A stretch of 64,000 bases of DNA from Streptomyces sp. MST-110588 (GTDB lineage Bacteria; Actinomycetota; Actinomycetes; Streptomycetales; Streptomycetaceae), in contig NZ_CP074380.1 in assembly GCF_022695595.1 (NCBI RefSeq), positions 3,670,001 through 3,734,000 on the forward strand, in the 5' to 3' direction. Position 1 is the stretch's first letter, and every line of letters begins with the position of its first letter. Of the stretch, positions 19,865 to 53,240 are shown in pieces. The notes under the pieces are model-generated. The model saw nothing but the letters and a program-made list of their open reading frames with translations, was not told where the DNA came from and did no database searches. A program made the position numbers and the translations under genes.

Positions 19865-20022
19865 GACATCGACAGTAGCCGAGCCCAGGGGCCCCGGCTT
19901 CCGCCCACCGTCCGGCACCGACCACCGTCGCGTTGGCATCAAACCACCGGTTCGGGGGAAAGTGAGCACATACGCCCGGTCTGTCGCATGGGCTCCGGGC
20001 GAAGACCTCGGCCCGAGGTGGT

Positions 20023-28439: not shown

Positions 28440-29423
28440 ATGAGCAACATCGAAGCGAAACCAGCCGAGTTGCGCTGCGCACCGGAGAGCGGGGACGGGG
28501 AGCCGGCGCCGGTGGTCGACATTCTCACCGCGCGCGACGTTCCGCTGGGCGGCCCGCGGGCCATGACCGTACGCCGTACGCTGCCCCAGCGCGCCCGTAC
28601 GCTGATCGGCGCCTGGTGCTTCGCCGACCACTACGGCCCCGACGAGGTCACCGAAACCGGCGGCATGGTCGTCGCGCCCCATCCGCACACCGGCCTGCAG
28701 ACGGTCAGTTGGCTGTTCAGCGGAGAGATCGAGCACCGCGACAGCCTGGGCAGCCACGCGTTCGTACGGCCGGGCGAACTGAACCTCATGACGGGCGGAT
28801 ACGGCATCAGCCACTCGGAGGTCTCCACCGCGCGCACCACCGTTCTGCACGGGGTGCAGTTGTGGGTGGCGCTGCCCGAGGAACACCGTTACACGGAACG
28901 GGACTTCCAGCACCACGTGCCCCGTCCCGTACGGGTCGACGGGGCGGAAATCAGGGTGTTCCTGGGGGCGCTCGCCGGTGACGTCTCTCCGGTACGTACG
29001 TTCACGCCGCTGCTCGGCGCCGAAATCACCCTCGAACCGGGCGCCACGACCACCCTCACCGTTGACCCCGCTTTCGAACACGGCCTCCTCGTCGACCACG
29101 GAAGCGTCCGCATGGCCGGCACCCTCCTGCGCCCCGCCGAACTGGGCTACCTCCCCACCGGCCCGGACACCCTGACCCTGACCAACGAATCGACGGACAC
29201 CGCCCGTACGATCCTGCTCGGCGGCACCCCCTTCGAGGAGGAAATCCTCATGTGGTGGAACTTCATCGGCCGTACCCACGAGGACATCGTCCAGGCCCGG
29301 GAAGACTGGCAGAACGCCTCCACCCGCTTCGGCACGGTCCCCGGCTACAACGGCGACCGCCTGCCCGCCCCCACCCTCCCGAACATCACCATCAAGCCGC
29401 GCAGGAACCCGCCACGACAGTGA
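28440..29423 (+). CDS. pirin-family protein
   Basis: 327 residues with the bicupin pirin fold. The metal-binding N-terminal cupin shows APHPHTGLQTVSWLFSGEIEHRDSLG (quoted here by its motifs HPHTGL and HRDSLG), then GYGISHSE and LHGVQLWVALP. The C-terminal pirin domain ends in the family segment WWNFIGRTHEDI. Pirins bind Fe or similar metals; some have quercetinase activity, others regulate. The role here is unknown. The gene ends directly at a decayed CRISPR remnant. Confidence 0.92.
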   Translation: MSNIEAKPAELRCAPESGDGEPAPVVDILTARDVPLGGPRAMTVRRTLPQRARTLIGAWCFADHYGPDEVTETGGMVVAPHPHTGLQTVSWLFSGEIEHRDSLGSHAFVRPGELNLMTGGYGISHSEVSTARTTVLHGVQLWVALPEEHRYTERDFQHHVPRPVRVDGAEIRVFLGALAGDVSPVRTFTPLLGAEITLEPGATTTLTVDPAFEHGLLVDHGSVRMAGTLLRPAELGYLPTGPDTLTLTNESTDTARTILLGGTPFEEEILMWWNFIGRTHEDIVQAREDWQNASTRFGTVPGYNGDRLPAPTLPNITIKPRRNPPRQ

Positions 29424-29484
29424 CGCGCCGCGATATGTGGGTGGGGGACAACAGCGGCTACCGCCCGATGAGCATGGCCTGCGC

Positions 29485-29513
29485 GGGACCGCCCCCGCGC
29501 GTGCGGGGACCAC
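29485..29513 (-). CRISPR. solitary type I-E-like CRISPR repeat with leader
   Basis: The 29-nt GGGACCGCCCCCGCGCGTGC...GGGGACCAC differs from the array repeat at 52709-53165 only at a few internal bases. It is followed at 29514-29570 by a leader-like stretch sharing TGACCTG and the 16-nt GTTTTTGCTTACTTTC with the leader of that array. That 16-mer lies 38 nt from the repeat here and 37 nt there. One 32-nt spacer-sized segment (29453-29484) and a poor repeat-like sequence (29424-29452, ending GGGGGACAAC) lie on the leader-distal side. Confidence 0.8.
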
Positions 29514-29570
29514 CAGGAATTGACCTGCGGTTCTGTTCGTCGGGCAGGCTGTTTTTGCTTACTTTCGCGG
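29514..29570 (-). promoter_or_regulatory. CRISPR leader of the solitary repeat
   Basis: It contains GTTTTTGCTTACTTTC at 29551-29566, identical to 53202-53217 beside the main array. This conserved block would be the leader promoter/integration motif reading to the left. Confidence 0.7.
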
Positions 29571-29722
29571 AGGCCGGCATCGCGGTCAATCAGCGCGCAT
29601 CACGCCCCTGGCCGGTCCGAGGCCGACGCTCGTGCTCGCCGCCGGGTGGCAGGAAGCAGCGGACGGCGGCTGGTGGTGGTAAAACGGGTGCGTTTCGGAA
29701 GTTTGGTTGTAAAGGTGGGGGC

Positions 29723-52708: not shown

Positions 52709-53165
52709 CAGACCACCCCCGCACACGCGGGAACCACATCCACGTCCTCGACCATGTCACCGAGGACTGGGGACCACCCCCGCACACGCGGAGACCACAC
52801 TCTCCTGGTCGACATGGACGGAACGGCCCGGGGACCACCCCCGCACACGCGGGGACCACTGCGCCGTCCAGCCGGGTATCCACCAGGGCTCGGGACCACC
52901 CCCGCAACACGCGGGGACCACTCCAGGTCTCCAATCAGAATGTGCGGCGGCCGGGGACCACCCCCGCACACGCGGGGACCACCGGTCGACGGCGATCAGC
53001 GCGGCCCGGCTGAAGGGACCACCCCCGCACACGCGGGGACCACCGGTGGGTACGGTGTTGAGTTTTTCCCCCACCGGGACCACCCCCGCACACGCGGGGA
53101 CCACGACCCTGGCGGCACCGGCGCGTTCACCACGACGGGACCACCCCCGCACACGCGGGGACCAC
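52709..53165 (-). CRISPR. type I-E CRISPR array, 8 repeats and 7 spacers
   Basis: The 29-nt repeats (GGGACCACCCCCGCACACGC...GGGGACCAC on the + strand) start at 52709, 52770, 52831, 52892, 52954, 53015, 53076 and 53137. All seven spacers are 32 nt. The fourth repeat has one inserted A. Repeats 1 and 2 carry substitutions, marking the left as the old, trailer end. On the minus strand the repeat reads GTGGTCCCCGCGTGTGCGGG..., with the CCCCGC/GCGGGG stem and an 8-nt 5' handle GTGGTCCC typical of I-E. No cas gene lies within the window. Confidence 0.98.
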
Positions 53166-53240
53166 AGGAGCTGACCTGGGCTTTCAGTCGGCGAGAGGGC
53201 CGTTTTTGCTTACTTTCCGAGAACTCGACATAACACCTAC
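53166..53240 (-). promoter_or_regulatory. CRISPR leader
   Basis: Adjacent to the perfect repeat end, it contains GTTTTTGCTTACTTTC at 53202-53217, shared with the solitary repeat locus near 29.5 kb. The array is inferred to be transcribed leftwards from here. Confidence 0.8.

What the first reader, a model, noticed from the sequence alone, without database searches (positions are those of the whole stretch)
29424..29570. Solitary CRISPR repeat with intact leader, 23 kb from the main array
One 29-nt I-E-like repeat at 29485-29513 is followed by sequence sharing TGACCTG and the exact 16-mer GTTTTTGCTTACTTTC with the leader of the 52.7-kb array. That 16-mer sits at nearly the same distance (38 versus 37 nt). 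On the other side a 32-nt spacer-sized segment is bounded by a weak repeat-like sequence (14 of 29 matches, best at its GGGGGAC-AC end). This looks like a collapsed second array, or a single repeat still able to accept spacers. It could also be a cargo-free CRISPR repeat used for regulation of the flanking pirin and hydrolase genes.
Basis: seen in the sequence. Interest (0 to 1): 0.75.

Follow-up and report, generated by a model that had tools for sequence, protein, structure and literature searches.

The report
A one-spacer leftover CRISPR array
A single CRISPR repeat with its own leader in a Streptomyces chromosome is best read as the shrunken remnant of one of several scattered memory arrays, and comparing its leader with relatives uncovered a short, possibly translated reading frame inside these leaders.

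Summary
In detail: a 29-nt I-E repeat (29485-29513, minus strand) sits beside a leader matching 29 of 31 conserved leader positions. It is one of six leader-bearing I-E loci scattered over this 7.9-Mb chromosome. The only Cse1 operon, 2.1 Mb away, is of the known reverse-transcriptase-associated Streptomyces kind. Two genome-wide queries found no cas1, so spacers probably cannot be added here now. In two sister Streptomyces, six of six leader loci in about 400 kb are orthologous but mostly differ in repeat number; a locus with one repeat and a decayed terminal repeat in one species is allelic to seven repeat units in the other. So this locus is best read as a contracted, frozen array. Regulation of pirin or hydrolase found no support. 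By-product: 50 of 53 distinct leaders carry a short ORF in one frame ending 18-24 nt before repeat 1, none in the other frames; a missing usual stop is replaced by a neighbouring in-frame one in 10 of 12. Substitutions show no amino-acid selection, so translation is plausible, not shown. Here the ORF lacks its stop and a ribosome-binding motif.

The parts
29485..29513 (-). the only full I-E repeat of the locus; CCCCGC/GCGGGG stem kept, 4-nt loop
   Evidence: folds at -17.2 kcal/mol
29514..29580 (-). leader, homologous to the leaders of the five other arrays of this genome; 29 of 31 conserved positions match after setting aside one extra base at the repeat junction
29551..29566 (-). conserved leader core GAAAGTAAGCAAAAAC (minus strand)
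29453..29484 (-). 32-nt spacer-sized segment; no target found
29424..29452 (-). candidate decayed terminal repeat: 14 of 29 overall (chance level), 8 of 9 at its 5' end at the exact period; no repeat hairpin; starts right after the pirin stop codon
29458..29580 (-). leader reading frame: ATG at 29578-29580, MPASAKVSKNSLPDEQNRRSIPG..., the canonical stop is absent and the frame runs through the repeat to TAG in the spacer; no Shine-Dalgarno 4-mer
   Evidence: coordinates and end read by hand
52709..53165 (-). main array of the window, 8 repeats by walking
53166..53231 (-). leader of the main array, with the short leader ORF MSSSRKVSKNGPLAD* (53184-53231)
   Evidence: coordinates read by hand
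28440..29423 (+). pirin gene, convergent with the locus
   Evidence: PF02678, PF05726
29723..31015 (+). GDSL-like lipase/acylhydrolase gene, divergent from the leader
   Evidence: PF13472

Best explanation
The locus is a type I-E CRISPR array contracted to leader, one repeat, one spacer and a decayed terminal repeat. Inferred: spacers were lost by recombination between repeats faster than they were gained. Shown: it is one of six leader-bearing arrays in the chromosome; the one Cse1-bearing effector operon found is far away and of the reverse-transcriptase-associated Streptomyces kind; and no cas1 was found. Inferred: that operon serves the arrays in trans, and without the integrase the array is frozen. 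It may still give one crRNA from its intact repeat hairpin, but the missing terminal hairpin, the shifted junction and the broken leader ORF point to an array going out of use.
For: Leader and repeat homology with near-invariant spacing in other Streptomyces. Six leader loci in the genome with 3, 14, 1, 8, 2 and 10 repeats (the third of the 0.97-Mb array, read from the printed tail, and the second of the 4.11-Mb array are degenerate). Effector operon cas3-cse1-cse2-cas7-cas5-cas6 present and cas1 not found. Sister species G031/G178: 6 of 6 leader loci in 400 and 405 kb have matching flanks on both sides and mostly differ in repeat number; G031 3849377 (leader-R-S-terminal repeat) is allelic to 7 repeat units plus the same terminal repeat in G178, by reading. 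The leader ORF stop is missing only here among the 33 canonical leaders.
Against: The terminal repeat is weak and not significant by overall identity. No relative with the same site was found, so the longer ancestor of this very locus is not seen. Array-specific loop variants are normal in this genome, so the changed repeat is no proof of decay. The array turnover was seen in a different lineage, whose cas1 status genome-wide is unknown.
Confidence: 0.82

Rival explanations
1. A live acceptor: leader plus one repeat kept as a landing site for naive spacer acquisition, with the integrase supplied by something absent from the assembly.
For: The leader is conserved at 29 of 31 positions; arrays of sister species turn over at fixed sites.
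Against: No cas1 in the genome by two queries; 1-nt shift at the junction seen in none of the other 17 matches; leader ORF broken.
Confidence: 0.08
2. A regulatory crRNA-like element (CreA/CreR-like, names recalled) that guides Cascade to a neighbouring or cas promoter.
For: One spacer between a good and a poor repeat, beside two genes, in a genome that keeps Cascade.
Against: Best partial matches in the neighbourhood, window and cas region are no better than with shuffled spacers (p 0.76, 0.33, 1.0); the only full-seed match with an AAN PAM is far off in the window, 15 of 32 in all, p 0.13. Genome-wide with 3 mismatches in 21 nt: 3 other hits against 2 for the reversed control. No fetched relative holds pirin and hydrolase together.
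Confidence: 0.05
3. A chance palindrome with a chance AT-rich block, not CRISPR.
For: GC-rich palindromes are frequent in such genomes (recalled).
Against: 0 expected for the repeat and 0.01 for the 16-mer in window shuffles; phased homology to other leaders.
Confidence: 0.01

Closest known systems
Orphan and minimal type I-E CRISPR arrays; multiple arrays distributed on Streptomyces plasmid pSHK1 (Guo 2011, as cited in passages of PMC12231136)
   Same: I-E repeat, leader, arrays scattered away from the cas genes
   Different: only one full repeat is left, and the genome has no detectable cas1
Reverse-transcriptase-associated type I-E of Streptomyces (PADLOC PDLC01135; passages of PMC5513706, PMC6013744, PMC8934634)
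   Same: RT with WGDD next to cas3, AbiEii, cas3-cse1-cse2-cas7-cas5-cas6 in the same genome
   Different: the solitary locus is 2.1 Mb away; a conserved neighbouring gene pair (CorA-like plus an unknown) and scattered short arrays are added here
Streptomyces I-E variant with tnsB/tnsC in place of cas1/cas2 (Faure 2019b, as cited in passages of PMC12231136)
   Same: complete effector module without adaptation genes
   Different: no transposase or AAA family matched the two conserved neighbouring genes
CRISPR leaders with Rho-dependent termination relieved by an sRNA (passages of PMC6700203, P. aeruginosa I-F)
   Same: the leader transcript as a control point of crRNA output
   Different: in the passages seen the ORF is in the sRNA, not in the leader; here a short ORF lies in the leader itself

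Membership tests
Type I-E CRISPR array | 29-nt I-E repeat with stem-loop | tested here: met
Type I-E CRISPR array | leader next to the first repeat | tested here: met
   29 of 31 conserved positions, one extra base
Type I-E CRISPR array | at least two repeats separated by a unique spacer at 61-nt period | tested here: inconclusive
   second repeat 14 of 29, 5' end 8 of 9 at the exact period
Type I-E CRISPR array | I-E effector genes in the genome | tested here: met
Active, adapting CRISPR array | cas1 in the genome | tested here: not met
   cas2 was not searched genome-wide on its own
RT-associated Streptomyces I-E system (as the serving machinery) | RT of PDLC01135 beside cas3 | tested here: met
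   in the genome, not at this locus
I-E with tnsB/tnsC | tnsB and tnsC beside the operon | tested here: not met
   no transposase or AAA match in the two conserved genes; other neighbours not scanned for it
CreA/CreR-like regulatory RNA | partial complementarity to a nearby or cas promoter | tested here: not met
CreA/CreR-like regulatory RNA | transcribed small RNA | not testable with these tools
   no RNA data

The most novel reading that the evidence does not exclude
CRISPR leaders of Streptomyces and relatives contain a conserved, translated short ORF (about 15 codons, M-[SP]-x-S-x-[EK]-V-S-K-N-...-stop; about 24 codons in one lineage). Its stop lies 18-24 nt before the first repeat, so pre-crRNA starts life as a tiny mRNA and ribosomes on the leader control array transcription, for instance by keeping Rho off.
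Probability: 0.5. Interest if true: 0.78.

Novelty: new member of a known kind. Interest (0 to 1): 0.5.

Why it matters
The locus itself is an ordinary end state of a CRISPR array, but it shows how such loci can arise: fixed chromosomal sites where leader-anchored arrays grow and shrink, down to one repeat. It also draws attention to the reverse-transcriptase-linked I-E systems, several of them without cas1 found and with scattered short arrays; two papers call experimental study of these RTs interesting (passages of PMC5513706 and PMC8934634). If the leader ORF is translated, it would be a new layer of control of crRNA production and would explain why these leaders are conserved beyond the part nearest the repeat.

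Tried and rejected
Protospacer search: 0 hits in viral contigs with a pattern free at five positions and with two exact 20-mers; phages one record, 20 of 32 nt at E=3; plasmids 99 records at E up to 10, of which 20 were listed, with E 0.7-9, judged chance; the other 79 were not seen. The 299-bp region as a mobile element: one plasmid with a 35-bp CRISPR-repeat match. Same site in relatives: 24 of 61 genomes had some match, own included, none of another genome spanning the site, with at most ten candidates scored per genome; in the 392-genome search the printed list was cut and showed hydrolase and pirin hits apart; only own-genome loci held both genes among those fetched by then. Rfam at gathering threshold: three tRNAs in the window, nothing here. 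Solved structures for the two conserved cas-neighbour proteins: none. For five of the eight G031 pieces, the G178 stretches guessed by position did not contain the counterpart, which says nothing about absence. Amino-acid selection on the leader ORF was tested and not found: over 25 disjoint pairs substitutions by codon position were 84/69/56, and 25 of 113 single-base codon differences were synonymous in frame 0, against 43 of 92 in frame 1 and 29 of 102 in frame 2. That is a result against a conserved peptide; it leaves room for translation as such, or for a DNA motif.

Rows dropped: 29 of the 82 sequences harvested were dropped as internal repeats, 53 kept. In one search my hydrolase reading was one base out of frame and was not used; it was corrected. 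One search counted the G237 single repeat as two because of an overlapping match 21 nt away; one search counts one.

Full report
What is there. On the minus strand the window reads leader, then a 29-nt repeat (29513 to 29485), a 32-nt segment (29484-29453) and a candidate second repeat (29452-29424) that begins right after the stop codon of a pirin gene. The repeat keeps the I-E stem (-17.2 kcal/mol); the candidate second repeat has none (-1.7 kcal/mol). The second repeat matches the first at 14 of 29 positions, which 47% of shuffled sequences reach within 12 offsets. Only its first nine bases, 8 of 9 at the exact 61-nt period, are better than chance (0.13% of shuffles over 3 offsets; chosen after looking).

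The leader block is tied to CRISPR. The 16-mer with up to 2 mismatches occurs five times in the whole genome, always beside a repeat, and never in the reversed control. At 3 mismatches the window has one more hit, at 19958, without a repeat. A repeat-plus-leader pattern was found in 8 of 392 Streptomyces genomes, the own included, 18 places in all; 17 have a total length of 57 and this one 58. In the species-representative collection 19 stretches matched; 15 are Streptomyces or Actinacidiphila arrays, and 4 from other phyla have no repeat and are chance. Against 27 other leaders that I chose from the fetched loci, the solitary leader matches 29 of 31 conserved positions once the extra base is set aside; the others match 26 to 31.

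The genome. The chromosome carries six leader-bearing I-E loci at 0.97, 3.12, 3.70 (this one), 3.72, 4.11 and 7.13 Mb, with 3, 14, 1, 8, 2 and 10 repeats, some of the terminal ones degenerate. The only Cse1 hit is at 5.785 Mb, in an operon cas3-cse1-cse2-cas7-cas5-cas6. Next to it lie a reverse transcriptase that PADLOC names as associated with a distinct I-E system from Streptomyces (E=3e-184), an AbiEii-like gene, a CorA-like protein and an unknown protein. No cas1 was found with Pfam PF01867. Nor was it found with the I-E Cas1 of G183, which matched in 5 of the 8 leader-bearing genomes: G183 itself, G144 (82%), G173 (78%), G382 (47%) and two fragments of 73 and 79% in different frames in G361. 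All 8 of these genomes have Cse1.

The reverse-transcriptase module. Its RT occurs in 7 of 392 Streptomyces genomes, and in all seven the same ten genes lie within the fetched 20 kb or so, in differing order. cas1-cas2 lie within 4 kb of it in two (G036, G381). Near the other modules none was seen: 100 kb for G088, 505 kb scattered over G031, 665 kb of G178. For G000 and G237 the genome-wide Cas1 searches were negative. Papers: passages of PMC5513706, PMC6013744 and PMC8934634 describe this RT beside I-E effector genes, the last mentions AbiEii. Passages of PMC12231136 describe adaptation-less I-E variants in Streptomyces. The pair of CorA-like and unknown genes matched no transposase or AAA family, so I do not equate it with the tnsB/tnsC variant.

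Contraction seen in relatives. G031 and G178 are 92-94% identical over the RT region. In 400 kb of G031 and 405 kb of G178 there are six leader loci each, in the same order and strand, and for all six pairs both flanks match. The repeat walker counted 6/5, 2/4, 4/3, 4/11, 3/6 and 1/1. In the last pair two shortened repeats stop the walker in G178; reading one search gives seven repeat units plus a terminal repeat shared with G031, which has one plus that terminal repeat. By reading, the first pair shares units at the trailer end; I saw no shared spacer in the others, but did not compute it. A seventh pair outside this stretch has 4 and at least 7 repeats. So leader-repeat-spacer-decayed repeat, the layout of the finding, is one allele of an array that is longer in a sister species. 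New spacers at these sites imply an integrase at work at some time since the two species parted (inference).

What it does. The spacer has no recognizable target. It shows no better complementarity to the neighbourhood, the window or the cas region than shuffled spacers. I therefore commit to a contracted, probably frozen array. That it contracted by recombination between repeats, and that it may still be transcribed, are inferences.

A reading frame in the leader. Nearly all these leaders can be read in one frame from ATG, GTG or TTG to a stop 18-24 nt before repeat 1. Over 53 distinct leaders, including the window's two, a stop in the last 39 nt occurs in 51 in that frame and in 1 and 2 in the others; an upstream start in frame in 52, 19 and 13; a complete ORF in 50, 0 and 0 (the last count is partly forced, because the core contains stops in other frames). 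In 16 clusters at 75% identity, 15, 0 and 1 have the stop. Twelve leaders lack the stop at -21; ten of these have one at -24 or -18, against 1 of 41 of the rest (Fisher p=3.6e-8, not corrected for kinship; five clusters involved). Shine-Dalgarno 4-mers precede the start in 11 of 29 canonical leaders (3.4 expected) and in 12 of 17 G031/G178 leaders with a start at -93 (4.6 expected). As the search windows overlap, offsets 1 to 3 nt downstream still give 10 to 12, 3 nt upstream gives 6 and 6, and offsets 12 nt or more away give 0 to 4. With the frame rule fixed beforehand I looked at 13 of the 22 plasmid records. By reading, 11 of the 13 loci have a sequence with the CAGG-like leader end, 13 sequences in all: 10 show the ORF in that frame, among them one Nocardiopsis; two show an ORF in another frame and one shows none. 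This count was made by eye. Against translation: no third-position excess and no synonymous excess. The window's solitary leader has the ATG and the core but neither stop nor Shine-Dalgarno 4-mer; 18 of the 29 other canonical leaders with a start at -66 also lack the 4-mer. Searches for CRISPR leader ORFs or peptides in the held library (the listings show 20, 20 and 15 papers) listed no paper on this by title or abstract; most subscription journals are not held. The nearest is PMC6700203 (passages), where Rho terminates in the leader and an sRNA relieves it.

Verdict. The finding is real and mostly ordinary: a minimal member of the I-E array family. The leader ORF is the part that could be new; I put it at even odds.

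Noticed in passing
G000:C1:5776-5791 kb (L072, L073), outside the window: Ten-gene RT-associated I-E module (CorA-like, unknown, AbiEii, RT, cas3 to cas6) kept together in 7 of 7 RT-bearing Streptomyces genomes; the 434-aa unknown protein has no Pfam or PADLOC match.
   Followed up: partly
G031 and G178, L190-L197, L208-L260: Many scattered short arrays, each with its own leader, including two clusters of three at orthologous sites within 400 kb; only ten candidates per genome were scored, so there may be more.
   Followed up: partly
leaders of 53 arrays; window 29458-29580 and 53184-53231: Conserved short reading frame inside the CRISPR leader, with stop compensation but no amino-acid selection.
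   Followed up: yes
window 29423-29424: Pirin relatives in some Streptomyces are followed by a small acetyltransferase gene (PF14542 in the two tested); here the CRISPR locus starts right at the pirin stop codon instead.
   Followed up: partly
window near 52892-52921: One repeat of the main array carries one extra base in its loop.
   Followed up: no
G361:C12:620246-620967: Cas1 homologue split over two frames in another leader-bearing Streptomyces; described only.
   Followed up: no
G237:C53:7258-13767 (L170): Three two-repeat arrays about 3 kb apart with similar leaders.
   Followed up: partly
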